Shown: piece by piece, positions 28,735 through 63,666 of the stretch
How the letters are laid out: each line of letters begins with the position of its first letter
Position numbering within the stretch: position 1 is the stretch's first letter
Source: Pedobacter sp. ISL-64
GTDB taxonomy: Bacteria > Bacteroidota > Bacteroidia > Sphingobacteriales > Sphingobacteriaceae
Assembly (NCBI RefSeq): GCF_018613605.1
Contig: NZ_JAGGPU010000009.1
Coordinates: 1-64,000 of the forward strand
Reading direction: 5' to 3'
DNA: 64,000 nt
Translations under genes and position numbers: made by a program
Notes under the pieces: model-generated
The model's input: the letters and a program-made list of their open reading frames with translations, nothing else
Database searches by the model: none
Told to the model about the DNA's origin: nothing

Positions 28735-28885
28735 AAGGTAGAAAGACTAGAGCTGAAAGACCAAAGTTTTATTAAACTCAGATCTACTAAGGCAGCTTAG
28801 GTAGTCAATATTTTTTTTTGCAAAGCATGGTCTTGTGTTTCATAGGTCCCGAAAGTCCTGCTATGCGTTCCAATCTTTTTGTGAT

Positions 28886-28907
28886 TGTCATGCTGAGCTT
28901 GTCGAAG
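28886..28907. repeat. Half copy of a dispersed repeat (family C)
   Basis: TGTCATGCTGAGCTTGTCGAAG matches the arms of the inverted repeat at 49777-49855. It lies in the 223-bp gap between pdxA and the MFS gene, in which I otherwise see no gene. Confidence 0.6.
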
Positions 28908-28975
28908 CACCATATCAAAAAGTATTTCCACTACTATCAGGTTTATTTTAGGTAAAATTGTGCATCAAATTCAAA

Positions 28976-50232: not shown

Positions 50233-51816
50233 ATGCTTAACCCTGAAATAGAAAAACGTAAAACCTTTGCCATTATTAGCCACCCCGATGCGGGCAAAAC
50301 CACACTGACAGAAAAATTTCTGCTTTTTGGTGGTGCTATTAATACTGCTGGGGCAGTAAAAAGGAACAAAGCGAACCAGAGTAATACTTCCGATTTTATG
50401 GAGATCGAAAAGCAACGTGGTATCTCGGTTGCGACTTCGGTAATGGGTTTCGAATATAGTGGTAAACGCATCAATATTCTCGATACACCTGGTCACAAGG
50501 ATTTTGCGGAAGATACCTACAGAACCTTATCGGCGGTAGATAGTGTTATTTTGGTAGTAGACTGTGTAAAGGGTGTGGAGGAACAGACCGAAAAACTGAT
50601 GTCGGTTTGCCGTATGCGTAACACCCCGGTGATTATCTTCATCAACAAAATGGACCGTGAAGGTAAAGAGGCTTACGATTTATTGGATGAAATTGAAGAA
50701 AAATTAAATATCAGCCTTTGTCCGCTTTCCTGGCCTATTGGTCAGGGACATACGTTTAAAGGTGTTTACAGCATTTATAACAAACATTTAAATTTATTCA
50801 ATTCAGATAAAACCAAAGTAACCGATTCGGTTGTGGCGGCAAGTGATTTAAATGATCCATCTTTATTGAATTACCTTAAAGAGAATGAAATCAATACATT
50901 GAAAGATGATGTTGAATTGGTTGATGGTATCTACGGTAAGATAGATAAGGATTTATATACCGATGGCTTGGTTGCACCAGTATTTTTTGGCAGTGCGATT
51001 AATAATTTCGGGATAAAAGAACTCTTGGACGCCTTTATTGATATTGCCCCGAGCCCTCGACATAGAGAGGCTGAAGAGCGTGATGTACTGGTGGAAGAGA
51101 AAAATTTCAGTGGGTTTGTATTTAAGATCCACGCCAACTTAGATCCAAAACACCGTGACAGGATTGCCTTTTTAAGAATTTGTTCAGGTAAATTTGAACG
51201 CAATAAATTTTATTACCATACCCGCCAGGATAAGAAGCTAAAGTTTTCTAACCCGATGGATTTTATGGCGAACGAAAAAAGTATTGTAGAAGAGGCCTGG
51301 CCGGGTGATGTGGTAGGTTTATACGATAGTGGTAACTTTAAAATCGGCGATACCTTAACCGAAGGTGAAAAACTGCAGTTTAAAGGTATCCCTAGTTTCT
51401 CTCCATCTATTTTTAAAGAGGTAGAAAATATGGACCCAATGCGCACTAAACAGCTGGAAAAAGGCATTGAGCAACTAACTGACGAAGGTGTTGCACAATT
51501 ATTCGTGATGCAGCCTGGAAACAGGAAAGTGATCGGTGCAGTTGGTGAGCTCCAGTTCGAGGTAATCAATTTCAGGTTAGAGCATGAGTATGGCGCAAAA
51601 TGTCGTTTCCGTACCTTGAGTTATACCCGTTCGAGCTGGGTAACTTCTGCCGACAGAAAGAAACTGGATGAATTTGTAAAACGTAAACAACAGCACATCG
51701 GTTTCGATAAAGAAGCTAATCCGGTATATTTGGCTGATAGTGAATACATGATTAATTTAACGAAACAGGATTATCCTGATATCGATTTCCATAAAACAAG
51801 CGAGTTTAAGAGTTAA
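50233..51816 (+). CDS. prfC: Peptide chain release factor 3
   Basis: A 527-residue GTPase. G1 is [14 protein letters not shown], the switch region is [13 protein letters not shown]3 is LDTPGHKDF and G4 is FINKMDRE. The C-terminal domains run to the family end. RF3 recycles RF1/RF2 from ribosomes after stop-codon hydrolysis. It is monocistronic, with its own promoter and a repeat downstream. Confidence 0.96.
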
Positions 51817-53465: not shown

Positions 53466-54518
53466 CTAGTTTCTTAAGGACTTTATAAAAACTTTTTCTT
53501 CATCAACGCTTTCGTATTGCTCATAAGTTTGCGCCAATCTTCTTTTGATTTTCGAAATCAACAATCGTGGCGAAAGCACTTTAACACACTCTCCAAAGCC
53601 TAAAATTTCGCGCTCCAGTTCATAGTTTAGTACCACATCGATCCTAAAAGTTGTTGTTTTCTCGTTCTTACTTAATACTACCTGCGATTGATGCATCGGT
53701 TTCGTTACGACATAGGGCGCATGATCGTTGGTAAATTCGAGGATCACTTTCTGCGCACGGTCCCTTTCGCTTTTGGTTACACCGATCAGATCTTCATAAT
53801 ACCGATCGAAATCTACTCCTTGATAACTTACAAATTCTTCGTTAGGCAATTCCTGAAATTCTACTATCCTATCCAATGCCAAATTTAAGATCCCAGGCCG
53901 TTTTTTCGCTTTACAGATCAAAAACCATCTGTTTCTGTATTCTTTTAACAAATACGGATAGTAAATTCCTTGTTGTGATTGTTGTGCCTTGAAAGATTTA
54001 TATTCAATTAATAGTGAACGTTTGTTTAAAACAGCCTGATATAATGGCGGAATACATTCCAAACCCTTAACGAGCTTATTACTTTCCAATTGAATATTAT
54101 TGCCACTCTGTTTGGTCGATTTGTATAGGTTGTTTTCTAAACGGGCAATCATATCGCTCATTTCATCGAAATAATTGAAGGCATTAAACTGTTTCAGTAC
54201 ACCCACAATCTCTTTCATTTTATCTACGTCGGCATTATTGATCGGCGCTTTGGTAATACTAAAACCAGAATCTTCGTAAGCATAAAAGCGTTTATCCTTC
54301 ACCACAATCGGTGCATTGTAACCCAGTTTATCACTTCGCATCAATTGGATATCAGCCTGGATAGTCCGCTTGCTTACCCCGGTGGTAATTCCTTCGAGCT
54401 CGTACAGGGTTGCCGACACCTTTTCAATAAGATCTTCTAGTGTCCATTTACGGTAACGGTTCTTCAAACAATCGTCGATGGTTTTATACCGGATAAGCGC
54501 CAATTTATTTACTGCCAT
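53466..54518 (-). CDS. WYL-domain transcriptional regulator
   Basis: A 350-residue regulator. An N-terminal winged-helix region (about 1-85) contains VSKRTIQADIQLMRSD as the recognition helix. The WYL domain (about 155-235) has YYPYLLKEYRNRWFLICKA (W198-F199-L200 at the WYL position), followed by a C-terminal WCX-type extension. WYL domains bind nucleic acid or nucleotide ligands and often control DNA-damage or defence genes. It is divergent from the slipin-RtcB operon across a 1-kb region with two similar dyads, so it is the likely regulator of that operon. Control of the downstream GH32 gene is an alternative. Confidence 0.9.
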   Translation of the reverse strand: MAVNKLALIRYKTIDDCLKNRYRKWTLEDLIEKVSATLYELEGITTGVSKRTIQADIQLMRSDKLGYNAPIVVKDKRFYAYEDSGFSITKAPINNADVDKMKEIVGVLKQFNAFNYFDEMSDMIARLENNLYKSTKQSGNNIQLESNKLVKGLECIPPLYQAVLNKRSLLIEYKSFKAQQSQQGIYYPYLLKEYRNRWFLICKAKKRPGILNLALDRIVEFQELPNEEFVSYQGVDFDRYYEDLIGVTKSERDRAQKVILEFTNDHAPYVVTKPMHQSQVVLSKNEKTTTFRIDVVLNYELEREILGFGECVKVLSPRLLISKIKRRLAQTYEQYESVDEEKVFIKSLRN

Positions 54519-54592
54519 TTTTAATCAATTTGGTTTTCAAGCTAAAAATCTGGTCATAAAGCTTAATTAAATATAGCAAAGTGTTCTTCATC

Positions 54593-54611
54593 TACGCAAT
54601 ACAATTGCGTA
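54593..54611. promoter_or_regulatory. Candidate operator dyad O1 on the WYL side
   Basis: TACGCAATACAATTGCGTA is a 19-bp dyad: TACGCAA-N5-TTGCGTA, 75 bp upstream of the WYL start codon. It has the same left half (C)TACGCAA and the same 5-bp spacer as the dyad at 54705-54723. Binding by the WYL protein is inferred. Confidence 0.6.
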
Positions 54612-54704
54612 ATTGGAAGATAAAAGAAAAAATATAATGTAAAAATTAAATTTATCAATCTAATTATCAGCTAATTAATTCTTTTAAGTCAAAATAAATT
54701 TTAC

Positions 54705-54741
54705 TACGCAAATCTGCCGCGTAGTGGTGGTGGCATCTTTG
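54705..54741 (+). promoter_or_regulatory. Candidate operator dyad O2 and promoter of the RNA-repair operon
   Basis: TACGCAA (54705-54711), N5, CCGCGTA (54717-54723) is the second dyad; it is flanked so that ACTACGC/GCGTAGT pair perfectly. CATCTTTG (54734-54741) is a one-mismatch TAnnTTTG element placed so that its -33 region falls on the dyad, where no TTTG is seen. A promoter that depends on or is blocked by the bound regulator fits this layout. Transcription would start near 54748. Confidence 0.5.
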
Positions 54742-55002
54742 TAATGTCGCCAGTCGATAAAGTTCTTTGATAAATATTAACAACAACAATCTGATTGACA
54801 GAAACAGTTAACTGTTCTAAATGATACGCGCTCTCGTTTATGCTGCTCCGGTTTTAACTGGATCAGCATTCACTAACATGAAGCCCCTGTTCGGGATACG
54901 CCGGACAGGGTTACATTAGTAGTGGTTATCATAATCAGATTGATATAAAGAAATCCCGAATGGGATGGCAATACTAAATAAAACTTATCCAATGTTGCGG
55001 GT

Positions 55003-55111
55003 TTCGGAATAGCCCCAAAGTATTCGGGCAATTGCGTAGAATATGCTGATAAGAATTGTGATAGATTGTCTAAACACGTTGTGTGTCGTGGGTTCGAATC
55101 CCACTTCCGAT
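55003..55111 (+). ncRNA. tRNA-like module 1 (anticodon arm replaced)
   Basis: The 5' acceptor-like TTCGGAA (55003-55009) pairs with TTCCGAT (55105-55111) at 6 of 7 positions. TA is followed by a D-like stem GCCC/GGGC (55012-55015, 55026-55029). The T arm is perfect: GTGGG-TTCGAAT-CCCAC (55088-55104). In place of the anticodon arm there are about 58 nt that fold on themselves (CAATT/AATTG enclosing GCGTA/TATGC). No encoded CCA. It is not a functional tRNA gene. Confidence 0.65.
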
Positions 55112-55114
55112 TAA

Positions 55115-55175
55115 TTCGGAATAGCTCAGAGGTTAGAGTAACAACCAAAATGCAGGTTCGAATCCTGCTTCCAAC
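55115..55175 (+). ncRNA. tRNA-like module 2 (no anticodon arm)
   Basis: Acceptor-like TTCGGAA (55115-55121) precedes TA and a canonical D arm GCTC-AGAGGTTA-GAGT (55124-55139). Only 12 nt follow before a perfect T arm GCAGG-TTCGAAT-CCTGC (55152-55168) and TTCCAAC (55169-55175). The linear acceptor pairs at 5 of 7 positions. The anticodon arm is absent. Confidence 0.65.
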
Positions 55176-55180
55176 CGTCA

Positions 55181-55255
55181 CTTGGAATAGCAAAATGGTA
55201 ATGCAATGGACTTAGGATCCATCTAAAAGAAGGGTAACTTTTCAAATCGCTCACC
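55181..55255 (+). ncRNA. tRNA-like module 3 (5' half with anticodon arm, no T arm)
   Basis: CTTGGAA (55181-55187), TA, a D arm GCA/TGC with GG in the loop (55190-55204), one base, then a perfect 5-bp anticodon arm ATGGA-CTTAGGA-TCCAT (55206-55222) with TAG in the anticodon position (leucine type). Downstream only a T-loop-like TTCAAAT (55241-55247) without a pairing stem remains. Its acceptor strand pairs at 6 of 7 positions with TTCCAAC of module 2. Confidence 0.6.
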
Positions 55256-55542
55256 AAAACCAGCGTTGCGCAACCGCGTTTGGCTTAAGATTTTTCGAAA
55301 TCCAAAAAGCAAATTTGTGTTTTGCTAAGTAAGGATCAGTGCAATAAGAAAAGATTTAAAAATCAAATGAGTTAATCGAAAAGGAAAATGCGATAACGAG
55401 CACATACCAGAATAGAAAGGCATAATTTCATTTTTAAACAAGCTTAATAAACTTTTACTTCCGCAGAAAACAGGTAAATGCTCTTCCGCAACGCTTTTAA
55501 GAGAATAAATAACAATAGAAATAAATTTTAACTCCAGAAAAC

Positions 55543-56640
55543 ATGAAAAGAGTAACCATTAACACCAATTATGTTGGATTGGTGTTTAAAAAAGGAAAAT
55601 TAAAAAACGTTTTAACAGCTGGAACTTACTGGTTAGGTTTCGGTGAAGACATGACTTTGTACGATATGGCAAAAGAGTACTATTACACGGTTGCCGAATT
55701 GGATATCTTATTGGAAAACACAGATTTTGTGAATTTGATTCACTTGGTAAGTGTTGCCGATAATGAATTGGCCTTAGTTTATCAAAACAAAAACTTCAAG
55801 AACGTTTTAACAGCTGGCAGACATGCCATCTGGAAAGGTTTGTCTGCATATGACTTTATTAAAGTAGATATCAGTAACATCAAAATTGATGAAACCATTG
55901 ATAAAAATTTGTTAGAGAAAGCACCATTATTGAATTACATCAGGGCTTATAAAGTAGAATCGTTCGAAAAAGCTTTATTGTTTATTGATGGTAAGTTTGA
56001 AAACGTATTGGAAGCAGGAAACTATGTTTACTGGAAAAACAGTACTACTGTTCAAGTTTTGAAAACCGATATGAGGCAATTGAATATGGAAATTATCGGT
56101 CAAGAAATTTTAACCAAAGATAAAGCGCAATTGAGGGTAAATTTCAGCATTCAATATAAAGTGGATGATATCATCAAAGCCTTATTGGATAACAAAGAAT
56201 TTGAAAAACAATTATACATCACCATGCAATTGGCATTAAGAGAATGTATTGGCTTAATGACTCTTGACGAATTGATGGAAAGCAAAGAAAAAATTGCCGA
56301 AATGGTAATGGCCATCACCTTGGATAAGGTTGAAAACTTGGGCGTAAAACTAACCAATTGTGGGGTTAAAGACATCGTTTTACCTGGTGATGTTAAAGAA
56401 ATTATGAACCAGGTTTTAGTTGCCGAAAAAAGAGCGCAAGCCAATATCATTACCAGGAGAGAAGAAACAGCATCGACCAGAAGTTTGTTGAATACAGCCA
56501 AATTGATGGAAGACAACGTTATGTTGTATAAGTTAAAAGAGATGGAATATGTAGAGAAAATCGCAGAAAAAATCAACAACATCAGCTTATCGGGCAGTGG
56601 ACAAATTGTAGATCAATTGAAACAAATCTTCGTAAAATAA
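55543..56640 (+). CDS. SPFH / slipin-like protein with three internal N-terminal repeats
   Basis: A 365-residue protein. The C-terminal part (about 180-330) is a band-7/SPFH domain (LTKDKAQLRVNFSIQYKVDD; LGVKLTNCGVKDIVLPGDVK), ending in a helical tail. The N-terminal half has three copies of one motif about 66 residues apart: LVFKKGKLKNVLTAGTY (13-29), LVYQNKNFKNVLTAGRH (78-94) and LLFIDGKFENVLEAGNY (145-161). Unlike typical slipins it has no N-terminal membrane segment. It is the first gene of the RtcB operon and may form an oligomeric scaffold for the repair enzymes. Confidence 0.85.
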   Translation: MKRVTINTNYVGLVFKKGKLKNVLTAGTYWLGFGEDMTLYDMAKEYYYTVAELDILLENTDFVNLIHLVSVADNELALVYQNKNFKNVLTAGRHAIWKGLSAYDFIKVDISNIKIDETIDKNLLEKAPLLNYIRAYKVESFEKALLFIDGKFENVLEAGNYVYWKNSTTVQVLKTDMRQLNMEIIGQEILTKDKAQLRVNFSIQYKVDDIIKALLDNKEFEKQLYITMQLALRECIGLMTLDELMESKEKIAEMVMAITLDKVENLGVKLTNCGVKDIVLPGDVKEIMNQVLVAEKRAQANIITRREETASTRSLLNTAKLMEDNVMLYKLKEMEYVEKIAEKINNISLSGSGQIVDQLKQIFVK

Positions 56641-56656
56641 ATTAAATTTAGAAACT

Positions 56657-56686
56657 CCTCGGTTAGGTGAGTATTACCTGCCGGGG
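56657..56686 (+). other. Intercistronic hairpin
   Basis: CCTCGG (56657-56662) pairs with CCGGGG (56681-56686, one wobble), with an inner AGGT/ACCT stem (56665-56668, 56676-56679). It fills the 64-bp gap between the slipin-like and first nucleotidyltransferase genes. There is no T-tract after it, so it is more likely an RNA-processing or stability element than a terminator. Confidence 0.6.
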
Positions 56687-56704
56687 ATTGAACAAGAAAT
56701 AAAA

Positions 56705-57466
56705 ATGAAAACTACAATAATAAACAGACTTGCAGAAATAGAAAGATCAAATGATATCAAAATATTATTTGCATGTGAATCAGGTAGCAGGGGATGGGAA
56801 TTTCCATCACCGGATAGTGATTTCGATGTCCGCTTTATTTATGTACGCCCGCTCAACTTTTATCTTTCGGTTCAGGATAAGGATGATCAATTGGGTTTCC
56901 CTATTAATGATGAACTGGATATTTATGGATGGGATATCAGGAAGGTGCTTAAATTGATCCGAAAATCGAACACCACTCCTTTCGAATGGTTACAATCACC
57001 TATCGTTTATGGAGAAAAGGATCATTTCAAGGAAGAATTATGGACATTATGCCAATCTTATTTTTATAGGAAGACAAATATCAACCATTATTTAGGAATA
57101 GCACACAGTGCTCTAGAAACCGTAGTAAACAGTGACGAAATTAAAATAAAAAAACTTTTTTATGTACTTCGCCCTCTACTTTCAGCTAAATGGTGCCTGA
57201 AAAAAAATACGATAGCACCAATGACCATTGGACCACTTTTGAACTTAATGCCAGAACACCTTCAAAAGTTGGTGAAAGACCTGATTACACTAAAGTCAAC
57301 CTCTGCAGAAGGATATATTATTAAAATACATCCTGAGCTAAGTAACTATATTGATGAGGAATTTAAAAACTGTACTGAAGGCGCTAAAGATTTACCAAAA
57401 GAAAGTTTTGATTCAGAAATGCTCGACGTCCTTTTTAGAAAAACAATAAACCGTTATGACGATTAA
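56705..57466 (+). CDS. Nucleotidyltransferase (YcgL/COG3541-like), copy 1
   Basis: A 253-residue protein with the polymerase-beta-type active site GSRGWEFPSPDSDFDVRFIY: G27-S28 and the metal-binding pair D39-x-D41. RKSNTTPFEWLQSPIVY is a further family segment. The substrate is probably an RNA 3' end or small nucleotide, as in other RtcB-linked nucleotidyltransferases, but this is inference from context. Its 3' end overlaps the next gene by 11 bp. Confidence 0.88.
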   Translation: MKTTIINRLAEIERSNDIKILFACESGSRGWEFPSPDSDFDVRFIYVRPLNFYLSVQDKDDQLGFPINDELDIYGWDIRKVLKLIRKSNTTPFEWLQSPIVYGEKDHFKEELWTLCQSYFYRKTNINHYLGIAHSALETVVNSDEIKIKKLFYVLRPLLSAKWCLKKNTIAPMTIGPLLNLMPEHLQKLVKDLITLKSTSAEGYIIKIHPELSNYIDEEFKNCTEGAKDLPKESFDSEMLDVLFRKTINRYDD

Positions 57467-58517
57467 AGATTTAAAGGACAAAAACCTATTATTATTCGAA
57501 TGTTTAAGCGGTAGTAAAGCCTATGGATTAGCCACTCCACAATCTGACACTGATATAAAAGGAATATATTATATGCCAAAAGAAATGTTTTTTGGCCTGA
57601 AATATATTTCTCAAATCAGCGATGAAAGTAATGACGAAGTTTACTATGAAATTGGCCGCTTTATCGAATTACTGATTAAGAACAACCCCAATATTGTCGA
57701 AATTTTAGCTACTCCGGAAGACTGTATCTTATATAAGCACCCAATAATGGACAAGCTTAGAATCGAGATGGTTTTATCAAAGTTATGTAAGGATACTTTT
57801 GGTGGCTATGCTTTAACCCAGATTAGAAAAGCAAAGGGATTAAACAAAAAAATATTAAACCCAATGCCTAAAACCCGGAAAACGGTATTAGACTTTTGTT
57901 TCATCACAGTAAACTATTCATCTGTAAAAGCGAAAACCTGGCTTACAAAAAATGGCATTTCGAAAGCTGATTGTGGATTGTCCAAAATCCCTAATGCTAA
58001 AGATCTGTATGCTTTGTTTCATGATGCAGAGAAGAAATTGAATTATAAAGGGATTGCGAACAAGGAAGCGGCAAATGAGGTTTCGGTCTCGTCAATACCT
58101 GCAGGAGAACAAGAAATTGCCTATTTATTTTTTAACAAGGATAGCTATTCATCTTATTGCAAGGAGTATAATGAATATTGGGAATGGGTAGAAAAACGAA
58201 ATGAAGACAGGTACAGCTTAAATAAAAGCCATGGCAAAGATTACGATGCCAAAAACATGATGCATACCATTAGGCTTTTGCAAGTAGCTCTTGAGATTGT
58301 ACGCGATGGAGAACTAAATGTAAAAAGACAAAATCGCGATGAGTTGCTTTTAATAAAAAGAGGAGAACTTGATTACGATGAAGTATTAAAAATGGCAGAA
58401 AAACTAATGCTACTAATAGAACAAGAAACAACAAAAAGTAAGCTTCAGGATAAACCAGATGCTAAGTTAATTGAGATGTTACTTGTTGAGATGAGAACTG
58501 AGCTATATGCCAATTAA
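57456..58517 (+). CDS. Nucleotidyltransferase, copy 2
   Basis: A 353-residue protein with the active site LSGSKAYGLATPQSDTDIKG: G19-S20 and metal pair D31-x-D33. FIELLIKNNPNIVEILATPED matches the COG3541-like segment of copy 1 (KLIRKSNTTPFEWLQSPIVY). It is 100 residues longer than copy 1, with a helical C-terminal part. It starts inside the end of copy 1 and ends 11 bp before rtcB, so translation is coupled. The two copies may modify RNA ends at different steps. Confidence 0.87.
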   Translation: MTIKDLKDKNLLLFECLSGSKAYGLATPQSDTDIKGIYYMPKEMFFGLKYISQISDESNDEVYYEIGRFIELLIKNNPNIVEILATPEDCILYKHPIMDKLRIEMVLSKLCKDTFGGYALTQIRKAKGLNKKILNPMPKTRKTVLDFCFITVNYSSVKAKTWLTKNGISKADCGLSKIPNAKDLYALFHDAEKKLNYKGIANKEAANEVSVSSIPAGEQEIAYLFFNKDSYSSYCKEYNEYWEWVEKRNEDRYSLNKSHGKDYDAKNMMHTIRLLQVALEIVRDGELNVKRQNRDELLLIKRGELDYDEVLKMAEKLMLLIEQETTKSKLQDKPDAKLIEMLLVEMRTELYAN

Positions 58518-58528
58518 AAGATTAAACA

Positions 58529-59953
58529 ATGAACAACAACATAACAGGTAATAACCTTATAGAAATAGGTTATTCCGAAGGAAAAATAGTAGGCTTGGCT
58601 TTAGATATCCTGAAAGAAAATTTTGCGGATATTGAAGAAAAAGAATTATTAGCCTTATTTAAAAAAGTAAAAGAATACCCGGAAAGTTTTTTGGATGACA
58701 AGGTATTAAATGTATTGGCAACTGCTGTGATCGAGGAAGCCAATCCAAAATCAGATGGGACCATTGAACTAATCAGCAATGCTAAAGATTATTCAATTTT
58801 CGGTGCCGATTATATAGAAGAAGGTGCCCGAAACCAAATGGATATCGCCATGAAACTGCCAGTTTCGGTAGCTGGGGCATTAATGCCTGATGCCCACCAA
58901 GGGTATGGCTTGCCGATTGGTGGTGTTTTAGCGACAAGAAATGCAATTATTCCTTATGGTGTAGGTGTAGATATCGGTTGCCGAATGGCGTTGAGCATTT
59001 TCGATATTCCGGAGAAACATTATTTCGGGAAAGATGCAATGTACAAACGCGAATTAATTGCTTTCACCAAATTTGGCGCAGGTCAGAATTTTAAAGGTAA
59101 TGAAAGGGCTGATCATGATGTTTTAGAAAACGAGGCTTTCAACGCTACTCCTTTTCTTAAAAATTTACACGGAAAGGCTTGGGCACAACTGGGTACTTCG
59201 GGTGGTGGAAATCACTTTGTAGAATGGGGAATTATCGATTTTGCGGAGCGTGATGAAATTTTGAATATCGATAAAGGCCGTTACGTAGCATTATTGACCC
59301 ATTCCGGTTCCCGTGGTTTTGGCGCAACAATCGCTGGTCATTATACCAAACTGGCTAAAGATATCTGCAAGCTTCCTAAAGAGGCGGCAAACCTGGCTTA
59401 TTTGGATCTAAATTCTGCCGAAGGACAAGAGTATTGGATTGCCATGAACTTAGCTGGTGATTATGCTTCTGCCTGTCACGAAGTAATTCATAAAAGATTA
59501 ACCAAGGCAATTGGCGCTAAAGTTTTGGCCAAGGTAGAAAACCACCATAATTTTGCATGGAAAGAAATGCTTGATGGAGAAGAAGTAATTGTCCACCGAA
59601 AAGGTGCTACACCAGCAGGGAAAGGTGTGATGGGGATTATTCCAGGAAGCATGACCGCACCAGGATTTTTAGTTAGGGGAAAAGGCGAAATGAATGCAAT
59701 CAATTCAGCATCTCATGGTGCGGGTAGACAAATGAGCCGAACAAAAGCGATTCAATCGATTACCAAATCGGATATGAAAGCGATTTTGAAAGATCATAAC
59801 GTTACCTTAATCGGAGCAGGTTTAGATGAGGCGCCAATGGCCTATAAAGACATCAACAAAGTGATGGCAGCACAAACTGAACTGGTTGATGTAGTGGCCA
59901 AATTTGAACCAAAGATGGTGAGAATGGCTGATGATGGAAGTCGTGAGGATTAG
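58529..59953 (+). CDS. rtcB: RtcB RNA-splicing ligase family protein
   Basis: A 474-residue ligase with a complete active site: D148-I-G-C151 (first Mn ligands), H229 in GGGNHFVEW, H258 in THSGSRGFG, a histidine in VENHHNFAW, and the guanylylated histidine H396 in SASHGAGRQMSR. It joins RNA 2',3'-cyclic phosphate or 3'-phosphate ends to 5'-OH ends using GTP and Mn. It is the last gene of the operon. No archease or RtcA is adjacent, so the upstream slipin-like protein and nucleotidyltransferases are its local partners. Confidence 0.96.
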   Translation: MNNNITGNNLIEIGYSEGKIVGLALDILKENFADIEEKELLALFKKVKEYPESFLDDKVLNVLATAVIEEANPKSDGTIELISNAKDYSIFGADYIEEGARNQMDIAMKLPVSVAGALMPDAHQGYGLPIGGVLATRNAIIPYGVGVDIGCRMALSIFDIPEKHYFGKDAMYKRELIAFTKFGAGQNFKGNERADHDVLENEAFNATPFLKNLHGKAWAQLGTSGGGNHFVEWGIIDFAERDEILNIDKGRYVALLTHSGSRGFGATIAGHYTKLAKDICKLPKEAANLAYLDLNSAEGQEYWIAMNLAGDYASACHEVIHKRLTKAIGAKVLAKVENHHNFAWKEMLDGEEVIVHRKGATPAGKGVMGIIPGSMTAPGFLVRGKGEMNAINSASHGAGRQMSRTKAIQSITKSDMKAILKDHNVTLIGAGLDEAPMAYKDINKVMAAQTELVDVVAKFEPKMVRMADDGSRED

Positions 59954-60006
59954 TTTGGAGGTGGAAGTTATTAGTTTGGAGTCAGAATAGTACCCCATAG
60001 AAAAGT

Positions 60007-60109
60007 CGTCATCTCCTAAAGCCCTACCTGTACCGATTTTTCATTGGTAGCGAAATGGAGAGATCTATGATAGATTTCTCGACTGCGTTACACTCCGCTC
60101 GAAATGACG
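60007..60109. repeat. Dispersed palindromic repeat, family A (longest copy)
   Basis: Begins CGTCATCTCC and ends CACTCCGCTCGAAATGACG. It contains ACCTGTACCGATTTT, GCGAAATGGAGAGAT and AGATTTCTCGACTGCG, shared with the copy at 23878. The 382-bp gap 59954-60335 holds this repeat, the rtcB terminator and the family E element; I see no gene in it. Confidence 0.8.
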
Positions 60110-60120
60110 ATCAAATTCAG

Positions 60121-60158
60121 AAAAAACCCTCTTCAAAATTAATTGAAGTGGGTTTTTT
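60121..60158 (+). terminator. Terminator of the rtcB operon
   Basis: AAAAAACCC-T-CTTCAA (60121-60136) pairs with TTGAAG-T-GGGTTTTTT (60143-60158) with one internal T/T mismatch, ending in a T-run. Confidence 0.8.
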
Positions 60159-60175
60159 ATAATACATTTTACAGA

Positions 60176-60287
60176 AACCGATTAGCACAACCTTAAGTTA
60201 AATAAACCTGATTGAAGTGGAAACAAAAAGCTTTTTCAGCTTTTGTTGGAACAAAAAGCAGGACTACAATAACCGATTAGCACAACA
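60176..60287. repeat. Family E element flanked by a 16-bp direct repeat
   Basis: AACCGATTAGCACAAC occurs at 60176-60191 and 60272-60287. Between them lies ATAAACCTGATTGAAGTGG ... GGACTACAATAACCG (60203-60276), with an inner AACAAAAAGC / GCTTTTGTT hairpin. The ends match the element at 49944-50030. Confidence 0.65.
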
Positions 60288-63112: not shown

Positions 63113-63445
63113 TTATTGTATTTCCAAACAAGAAAATTCATCTTGTTTGATAAACTCATTTATTAGTTCTTTTTTCTCTATTAAAACTTAAGCAATTCCT
63201 GATGTTGTATTGTTTCCAAAACGTAACCAGATTATTTTTGGCGGATGGCCATATAGATTTGAAAATTCATAGAAATCTGCATCGAAAGTAACTACAATAA
63301 GATTATTTTGTCCTGCAAATGTCCAGATTTCCTTATCCGTTTTGTTTTCTAACTTTAACCTTCGTATTTGGGTACAAGCTGAGAAATCGGCCTCTAAAAG
63401 TTTTATGATTCTATGAGAAATATTTTGGTCAAATAGAAGTTTCAC
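63113..63445 (-). pseudogene. DUF5615 PIN-like toxin gene with a premature stop
   Basis: Starts with GTG at 63445 and encodes 85 residues (MKLLFDQNISHRIIKLLEAD at the start, VTFDADFYEFSN in the middle, IIWLRFGNNTT near the end) before TAA at 63188-63190. The same frame continues for 24 codons, VLIEKKELINEFIKQDEFSC then LEIQ, to a second TAA at 63113. The joined length of about 110 and the CLEI-type ending are what I expect for a complete DUF5615 protein. The PIN-like acidic residues (D7, D72, D74) are intact. One substitution has probably removed the C-terminal helix. Confidence 0.8.
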
Positions 63446-63666
63446 TAGGCTACTCTTATTTTATGCTCTCTATCTGCTGAATAAGCAAGACAGGATAAGA
63501 TCTCTTCTTCAGTAATTTCAGGAAAATCTGTCAATATACTTTGCATAGTCATCCCATTTGCTAGCCATCCCAAAACATCATACACAGCGATTCTGGTTCC
63601 TTTTATGCAGGGCTTACCAAAACGTTTGTTAGCGTCAATTTCTATGAAATTAGAATAAGTTTTCAT
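63445..63666 (-). CDS. DUF433 antitoxin-like protein
   Basis: A 73-residue protein of the DUF433 (VapB-like/ParDE-adjacent) family, with FGKPCIKGTRIAVYDVLGWLANGM as the conserved winged-helix core and EITEEEILSCLAYSADRE at the end. DUF433 genes regularly precede DUF5615 PIN-like genes as presumed antitoxins. Its TAG stop overlaps the GTG start of the partner by one base, so they are coupled. The antitoxin frame is intact while the toxin is broken. Confidence 0.88.
   Translation of the reverse strand: MKTYSNFIEIDANKRFGKPCIKGTRIAVYDVLGWLANGMTMQSILTDFPEITEEEILSCLAYSADREHKIRVA

What the first reader, a model, noticed from the sequence alone, without database searches (positions are those of the whole stretch)
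53466..60158. RNA-repair locus: WYL regulator divergent from slipin-like / two nucleotidyltransferases / RtcB with an 800-nt structured leader
Seen: an intact RtcB ligase at the end of a tightly packed plus-strand operon (11-bp overlap between nucleotidyltransferases, 11-bp gap to rtcB), with a WYL regulator opposite. Known: in enterobacteria rtcBA is run by RtcR with sigma-54, and Salmonella rtcBA lies beside tRNA-like Y RNAs. Here a different regulator, a scaffold-like SPFH protein and two end-modifying enzymes replace RtcR and RtcA. Inference: the set senses and repairs cleaved RNA, perhaps after tRNase attack.
Basis: partly seen in the sequence, partly recalled or inferred. Interest (0 to 1): 0.85.

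Follow-up and report, generated by a model that had tools for sequence, protein, structure and literature searches.

The report
RNA-repair operon with tRNA-mimic RNA
A Pedobacter-like bacterium carries a switchable RNA-repair operon whose long leader encodes an RNA that imitates two tRNAs wired in a scrambled order, and close relatives have repeatedly swapped this RNA and its partner protein for a Ro60 protein with Y-RNA-like RNAs, which suggests the two do the same job.

Summary
The genes are as described: a WYL regulator facing SPFH, RlaP1, RlaP2 and RtcB. It holds two chained tRNA-like modules (55078-55145; 55152-55222) in permuted order: T-arm, closed acceptor hairpin, D-arm. Module 1 is opened at the anticodon, as in YrlA Y RNA. 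Covariation across 45 relatives supports the fold (27 of 32 pairs change on both sides). At the same chromosomal site, 3 of 9 same-genus relatives with RlaP1 carry Ro60 plus Y-RNA-like elements in place of leader plus SPFH, with breakpoints at the likely transcription start and the SPFH stop codon; a tree forces at least three label changes. A palindromic operator lies in 60 of 60 WYL-bearing SPFH loci and before Ro60 cassettes. Best reading: a WYL-controlled repair operon in which SPFH plus the tRNA-mimic RNA form a scaffold RNP equivalent to Ro60-Y RNA. The kind (SPFH plus a 'novel tRNA-like molecule' in RNA-repair systems) was, as I recall, predicted by Burroughs and Aravind in 2016; that paper was not readable here. 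I have no expression or binding data.

The parts
53466..54518 (-). WYL/WCX regulator, divergent
   Evidence: Pfam WYL 2.8e-10, WCX 1.6e-8
54592..54613 (.). operator 1, on the WYL side
   Evidence: 1 mismatch to CTACGCAAN7GCGTAGT
54704..54725 (.). operator 2, the only perfect match in the held genome
   Evidence: conserved in relatives
54735..54741 (+). -7-like box ATCTTTG; likely start near 54748 (inference)
   Evidence: unchanged in the nine leaders aligned; Bacteroidota consensus recalled; homology to Ro60 alleles breaks at 54748
54749..56638 (+). exchange segment: leader RNA + SPFH, replaced by Ro60 + Y-RNA-like elements in L040, L045, L046
   Evidence: blastn breakpoints 54748 and 56634-56639 in all three
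55078..55145 (+). permuted tRNA-like module 1 (anticodon-stem strands outside; variable loop, T-arm, acceptor hairpin, D-arm inside)
   Evidence: R1 83.8 bits (the window is one of the model's 39 rows); covariation; MFE
55152..55222 (+). tRNA-like module 2 (T-arm, acceptor hairpin, D-arm, anticodon-type hairpin with UAG in the loop)
   Evidence: R1 34.2 bits over 55152-55205; T, acceptor and D pairs covary; anticodon hairpin read by eye
55225..55243 (+). hairpin like a class II variable arm
   Evidence: read by eye and in one MFE fold; not tested by covariation
55543..56640 (+). SPFH/Band-7 (slipin-type) protein, 365 aa, no membrane helix evident
   Evidence: Band_7 1.4e-29; highest 19-residue hydropathy 1.24
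56705..57466 (+). RlaP1 nucleotidyltransferase
   Evidence: PF10127 6.8e-72; GS..DFD motif
57456..58517 (+). RlaP2 nucleotidyltransferase
   Evidence: PF10127 1.7e-20; GS..DTD motif
58529..59953 (+). RtcB RNA ligase, intact reading frame
   Evidence: PF01139 1.6e-79

Best explanation
This is a stress-switched RNA-repair operon. SHOWN by sequence: the gene set; a conserved palindromic operator, two copies in the WYL-operon gap; a two-module permuted tRNA-like RNA in the leader, kept by compensatory change; repeated exchange of 'leader RNA + SPFH' for 'Ro60 + Y-RNA-like elements' under the same operator, at one chromosomal site. INFERRED: the WYL protein keeps the promoter shut (operator 2 lies about 23-44 nt upstream of the likely start) until a nucleotide-type signal of RNA damage binds it. 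The leader RNA then acts in trans. SPFH oligomerises and uses the RNA, a mimic of a tRNA opened at its anticodon, as tether or docking surface, so that RtcB and the RlaP enzymes work on tRNAs cut in the anticodon loop. SPFH plus this RNA is the functional counterpart of Ro60 plus Y RNA.
For: Covariation: 27 of 32 pairs change on both sides; 96.8% of cells paired against 77.7% shuffled and 39.7-50.5% slid. Model R1 of module 1 scores the window at 83.8 bits; the best hit elsewhere in its genome is 23.2 (150 of 1353 first-look candidates scored). In one search R1 rings in 9 of 9 SPFH loci and 7 of 7 Ro60 loci and in 0 of 14 other RlaP loci (L058 not searched; one extra weak hit in L054 is beside an ordinary tRNA-Pro). 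At least seven of those SPFH loci are the same contigs as rows of the named set, several used in training; the Ro60 loci are independent of it. In the named set R1 rings above 25 bits in 77 of 80 loci, 39 of 42 held-out ones, some of them near copies of training rows. T-loop pairs: 71 of 80 upstream of SPFH, 1 of 1076 downstream tiles. Exchange breakpoints; at least 3 label changes forced by starred branches. Operator in 60 of 60 against 1 of 60 shuffled, and in 7 of 7 Ro60 loci (no shuffled control there). Anabaena precedent: one repressor, TrcR, silences rtcB, a slipin gene and a 26-tRNA array until translation stress (PMC10272220, passages).
Against: No expression, processing or binding data. 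RNA and SPFH are not inseparable: 9 of 80 loci lack the T-loop pair, L137 and L138 have no R1 hit, L122 only 18.4 bits. R1 also rings at E<=1e-6 in 263 of 395 phylum genomes; I think most are tandem tRNA genes, but did not check them. Rfam at gathering thresholds lists no YrlA in the Ro60 loci L040, L045, L046, so their elements are Y-RNA-like by position and module only. Nine of 80 loci show no RtcB in the stretch held. Module 2 alone folds no better than shuffles, and a stretch holding both modules has a different minimum-energy fold, though its centroid keeps most module-1 hairpins. The tree shows label changes, not their direction, and does not exclude exchange by transfer of flanks. The operator test used mononucleotide shuffles and a consensus taken from this window.
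Confidence: 0.62

Rival explanations
1. The tRNA-like leader is a cis-acting sensor of the mRNA, like a T-box or attenuator, that tunes SPFH-RtcB expression by tRNA state or by being cut by the same nuclease.
For: It sits in the 5' leader, in the same orientation as the genes.
Against: In Ro60 alleles the related modules lie after Ro60 and before RlaP1, not in the leader. About 300 nt separate the RNA from SPFH, with no terminator-like site on the + strand between them. An operator already offers a switch.
Confidence: 0.15
2. The modules are decoys or competitive inhibitors that soak up anticodon nucleases or tRNA-modifying enzymes; repair is separate.
For: T- and D-arms are kept. A competitive-inhibitor role was proposed for YrlA by Hughes et al. 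(PMC7790460, passages).
Against: Module 1 has no closed anticodon loop. In L104-type loci the module-2 anticodon hairpin is replaced by a GAAA-loop hairpin (by eye), odd for a nuclease bait.
Confidence: 0.13
3. The modules are permuted tRNA genes whose halves are joined by RtcB to give working tRNAs.
For: Order 3' half then 5' half, with RtcB in the operon. Some relatives carry true tRNA genes next to it.
Against: In the window the acceptor strands are joined by loops of about 5 and 7 nt with no CCA; some relatives have longer loops. Anticodons vary or are lost (by eye). ARAGORN finds no tRNA in the window.
Confidence: 0.04

Closest known systems
RNA-repair systems with SPFH/Band-7 scaffold and a 'novel tRNA-like molecule' (Burroughs and Aravind 2016, NAR 44:8525; abstract recalled, paper not held)
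   Same: RNA ligase, nucleotidyltransferases, SPFH and a tRNA-like RNA in one system.
   Different: I cannot compare details. Documented here: two chained permuted modules, a WYL operator, and repeated allelic exchange with Ro60 and Y-RNA-like elements.
Salmonella rsr-yrlBA-rtcBA and YrlA Y RNA (RF02553)
   Same: T-arm, acceptor and D-arm in permuted order (alignment to RF02553); beside rtcB (PMC7790460 and PMC8394870, passages).
   Different: SPFH in place of Ro60, WYL in place of RtcR, no RtcA in the operon, two modules; below the Rfam cut-off (33.5 against 69 bits).
Citrobacter/E. coli slipin-nucleotidyltransferase unit
   Same: Homologous SPFH and RlaP with a T-arm plus acceptor hairpin upstream; a match to the Citrobacter slipin gene in 1623 of 5426 E. 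coli genomes (six rows seen, all named slipin).
   Different: rtcR opposite in Citrobacter; the RNA is reduced (R1 17.5 and 13.8 bits); no RtcB found in the two stretches.
Anabaena TrcR regulon (PMC10272220)
   Same: One repressor over rtcB, a slipin gene and an array of reserve tRNAs, released by translation inhibitors (passages).
   Different: The genes have scattered locus numbers and 'WYL' does not occur in the text; homology of that slipin not tested.
Major vault protein
   Same: In 8 of the 10 MVP rows shown the SPFH model aligns from residue 2-4 to 288-321 (Z 10.1-12.1, rmsd 2.8-8.4); Foldseek E 2.7e-11, TMq 0.47 for 9r86. A review notes band 7 proteins in BLAST searches with MVP (PMC7916137, passages).
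   Different: 365 aa; stomatins are closer (Z 16.9); ribosomal-protein rows reach Z 10.1; sequence support is weak (MVP_shoulder in 8 of 59, best E 0.0079).

Membership tests
SPFH-type RtcB repair system (2016 class, definition recalled) | RtcB-type RNA ligase | tested here: met
   PF01139 1.6e-79, motifs present
SPFH-type RtcB repair system (2016 class, definition recalled) | nucleotidyltransferase of the RlaP kind | tested here: met
   two PF10127 proteins; both found in 22 of 80 relatives
SPFH-type RtcB repair system (2016 class, definition recalled) | SPFH/Band-7 partner | tested here: met
SPFH-type RtcB repair system (2016 class, definition recalled) | cognate tRNA-like RNA | tested here: met
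   that SPFH binds it is untested
SPFH-type RtcB repair system (2016 class, definition recalled) | repairs cleaved RNA in the cell | not testable with these tools
   needs experiment
YrlA Y RNA (RF02553) | score above Rfam gathering threshold | tested here: not met
   33.5 bits against 69
YrlA Y RNA (RF02553) | tRNA-like domain of D, T and acceptor arms | tested here: met
YrlA Y RNA (RF02553) | Ro60/TROVE partner in the operon | tested here: not met
   no TROVE among the five proteins; rest of the genome not searched
ordinary tRNA gene | unpermuted cloverleaf found by ARAGORN | tested here: not met
   0 genes; the Rfam tRNA hits of 33.3 and 32.4 bits are the two lowest of the 52 listed for the genome
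rtcBA operon under RtcR | RtcA and RtcR in or beside the operon | tested here: not met
   neither among the five proteins nor among the six flanking proteins scanned; rest of the genome not searched
major vault protein | MVP repeats and cap | tested here: inconclusive
   fold rows span the N-terminal repeats; no MVP chain among the 24 found by sequence at E<=10

The most novel reading that the evidence does not exclude
SPFH proteins of this family look cytosolic, carry extra N-terminal repeats and match the major vault protein over most of their modelled length. With the tRNA-mimic RNA they may form a ring or cage RNP, a bacterial vault-like particle for tRNA repair. The vault's own parts (SPFH-like shoulder, the TROVE protein TEP1, a small vault RNA; PMC7916137, passages) would then echo the two interchangeable cassettes seen here, SPFH + RNA and TROVE + RNA.
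Probability: 0.12. Interest if true: 0.92.

Novelty: new member of a known kind. Interest (0 to 1): 0.62.

Why it matters
It gives a natural genetic test of what Ro60-Y RNA does in RNA repair: at one site and under one promoter the label has changed at least three times between Ro60 and an unrelated protein with its own tRNA-mimic RNA. It supplies a covariation-backed structure for that RNA and an operator for the WYL regulator. Matches to a related slipin gene in about 30% of complete E. coli genomes make the question approachable in a laboratory species.

Tried and rejected
Regulon beyond the locus: the only other place with 1 mismatch in the genome lies inside a SusC-type coding gene (that name is my reading of the ORF), so I dropped it. 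Looser hits are noise: 46 in all within 3 mismatches against 155 for the reversed control.

R1 as a genome-wide detector: rejected, because it rings in 263 of 395 phylum genomes.

Phage carriage of SPFH: no match in the phage collection at E 1e-10.

First SPFH model, on 9 sequences: poor (pLDDT 54). The second, on 59, was used (77.3); residues 299-365 stay under pLDDT 50 although highly conserved. The structure tool warns that outside residues 112-291 the model is barely tested.

Literature: eight searches (lists of four of them capped). No row shown had a title or abstract start on an SPFH-associated tRNA-like RNA or on Ro60/SPFH exchange. The library lacks the papers most likely to hold it.

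Rows dropped: one search used 45 of the 72 sequences with a T-loop pair. The 27 left out were my choice: mostly near copies, but also rows of odd register or spacing (L117, L118, L134, L136, L139, L146, L148). Six more were dropped by hand before model R1 (39 rows). At least eight of the 31 family loci are the same contigs as named loci (for example L039 and L075), so the two sets are not independent.
Full report
WHAT IS THERE. RtcB keeps its motif stretches. Both nucleotidyltransferases belong to Pfam RlaP and keep a GS..DxD motif. The genus is probably Pedobacter: the best named relatives of SPFH are Pedobacter (97% identity); the record itself is unnamed.

THE LEADER IS AN RNA GENE. Rfam finds two tRNA hits in the leader (33.3 and 32.4 bits) that ARAGORN does not see, and a sub-threshold YrlA hit (33.5 bits). 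The reason is the order of parts: T-arm, then an acceptor stem closed by a short loop, then the D-arm. Module 1 is 55078-82 (outer stem), 88-104 (T-arm), 105-121 (acceptor hairpin), 124-139 (D-arm), 141-145 (outer stem). Two bases join acceptor and D-arm, one joins D-arm to outer stem, and five stand where the variable loop would be, as in a tRNA. The outer stem corresponds to the anticodon stem, so the module looks like a tRNA opened at its anticodon. Module 2 follows at 55152-55222 and ends, by eye, in a hairpin with a seven-base loop.

EVIDENCE FOR THE FOLD. On a sequence-only MAFFT alignment of 45 leaders RNAalifold returns this fold without guidance: 32 pairs, 27 with changes on both sides. 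96.8% of cells pair, against 77.7% after shuffling and 39.7-50.5% after sliding; covariation score 0.578 against 0.212 and at most 0.143. All five pairs of the outer stem of module 1 have both-sided changes. Module 1 alone folds so at minimum energy; module 2 alone does not stand out, and the two together have another minimum-energy fold. Related sequences inflate such counts, as the tool warns; the slid control is the safer one.

DISTRIBUTION. RlaP1 relatives lie in 32 of 201 family genomes, the window's own included, and the SPFH family in 20 of 395 phylum genomes, likewise (E<=1e-60): an accessory system. Of these 80, 60 have the WYL gene divergent upstream, 65 RtcB downstream on the same strand (71 anywhere in the stretch), 22 both RlaPs, 4 also Ro60: L096, L103, L129, L135. 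These are tblastn finds with the window's proteins, and some stretches end early, so they are lower bounds. In the 31 family loci, RlaP pairs sit with SPFH (10), Ro60 (7), Hen1/Pnkp (5) or none of these (9). The RNA module follows SPFH and Ro60, not RlaP: 9 of 9, 7 of 7, and 0 of 14 (30 of the 31 loci searched).

EXCHANGE WITH RO60. In L040, L045 and L046 (3 of the 9 same-genus relatives with RlaP1) homology to the window runs to 54748 and resumes at 56634-56639, and the downstream aminotransferase is the same. Between the breaks they carry Ro60 (TROVE and vWA_Ro60 by Pfam in L040; L045 and L046 by tblastn) and a row of Y-RNA-like elements with the same module (sequence of L040 and L046; R1 in all three). 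Rfam at gathering thresholds does not name them YrlA. On a tree of the shared RlaP1-RlaP2-RtcB DNA, L040 pairs with SPFH-type L039 (100/100) and L046 with SPFH-type L044 (99/99); starred branches force at least three changes. Which way they went is not shown. The two cassettes are interchangeable in place.

SWITCH. A palindrome near CTACGCAA-N7-GCGTAGT occurs at 54592 and 54704. Within 3 mismatches it is in 60 of 60 WYL-bearing loci against 1 of 60 after shuffling. Without a shuffled control it is in 16 of the 20 loci that lack a WYL gene in the stretch and in 7 of 7 Ro60 loci. The two sites stand 112 bp apart in the window, L045 and L046 and 111 in L040. Position relative to the likely start suggests repression; this is inference. 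No other convincing site was found in the genome.

BEYOND BACTEROIDOTA. Homologous SPFH genes were read in Citrobacter, E. coli, Burkholderia, Photobacterium and Subdoligranulum records (five of nine plasmid-collection hits looked at). All five have a T-loop motif upstream. R1 scores 43.9 and 31.6 in Photobacterium, 25.6 in Burkholderia, 21.0 in Subdoligranulum, and 17.5 and 13.8 (partial) in Citrobacter and E. coli. In Citrobacter the neighbour is rtcR, so the regulator can be exchanged too. A distant-mode search with the Citrobacter slipin gene matches 1623 of 5426 E. coli genomes.

PROTEIN. The AlphaFold2 model (59 sequences, pLDDT 77.3) matches stomatins best (Z 16.9) and major vault protein over a longer span; ribosomal proteins of the same small fold reach Z 10.1, close to the vault rows. 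The highest 19-residue hydropathy is 1.24 in the window protein and 1.72 among 59. The usual cut for a membrane helix is near 1.6 (recalled), so a membrane anchor is unlikely for the window protein but not excluded for every relative.

EXTRA tRNA GENES. Seventeen of 80 loci have ARAGORN tRNAs in the 4.5 kb before SPFH; the L147 one overlaps the modules and is probably false, leaving 16. tRNA-Tyr(GUA) occurs in 11. Six Aquimarina loci (L136, L139, L141, L143, L146, L148) hold 3 to 16. This recalls the Anabaena reserve array that TrcR silences together with rtcB and a slipin gene (PMC10272220, passages).

VERDICT. I saw none of these in the rows shown by eight searches, in a library that lacks the key papers.

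Noticed in passing
L105, L108, L118, L126, L134, L137, L141, L143, L145, L146, L148, upstream of SPFH: True tRNA genes for Tyr(GUA), alone or in arrays, lie upstream of SPFH; several have an unusual base where U8 is expected (by eye). Possibly reserve tRNAs.
   Followed up: partly
window 60200-60269 (+) and 28850-28948 (-): Two Flavo-1 RNA hits (RF01705), one just downstream of rtcB.
   Followed up: no
window 63188-63666 (-): DUF433 + DUF5615 (PIN-like) pair, a likely toxin-antitoxin module.
   Followed up: no
window 50233-51816 (+): Release factor RF3 gene two genes before the operon; homologous DNA also upstream in the Ro60 allele L040.
   Followed up: no
L049 4398-5494 (oriented): SPFH is split into two overlapping frames, so this copy may be broken or hold a sequencing error.
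   Followed up: no
L218 5904-6833: A zeta-toxin family gene lies next to the E. coli slipin-nucleotidyltransferase unit.
   Followed up: no
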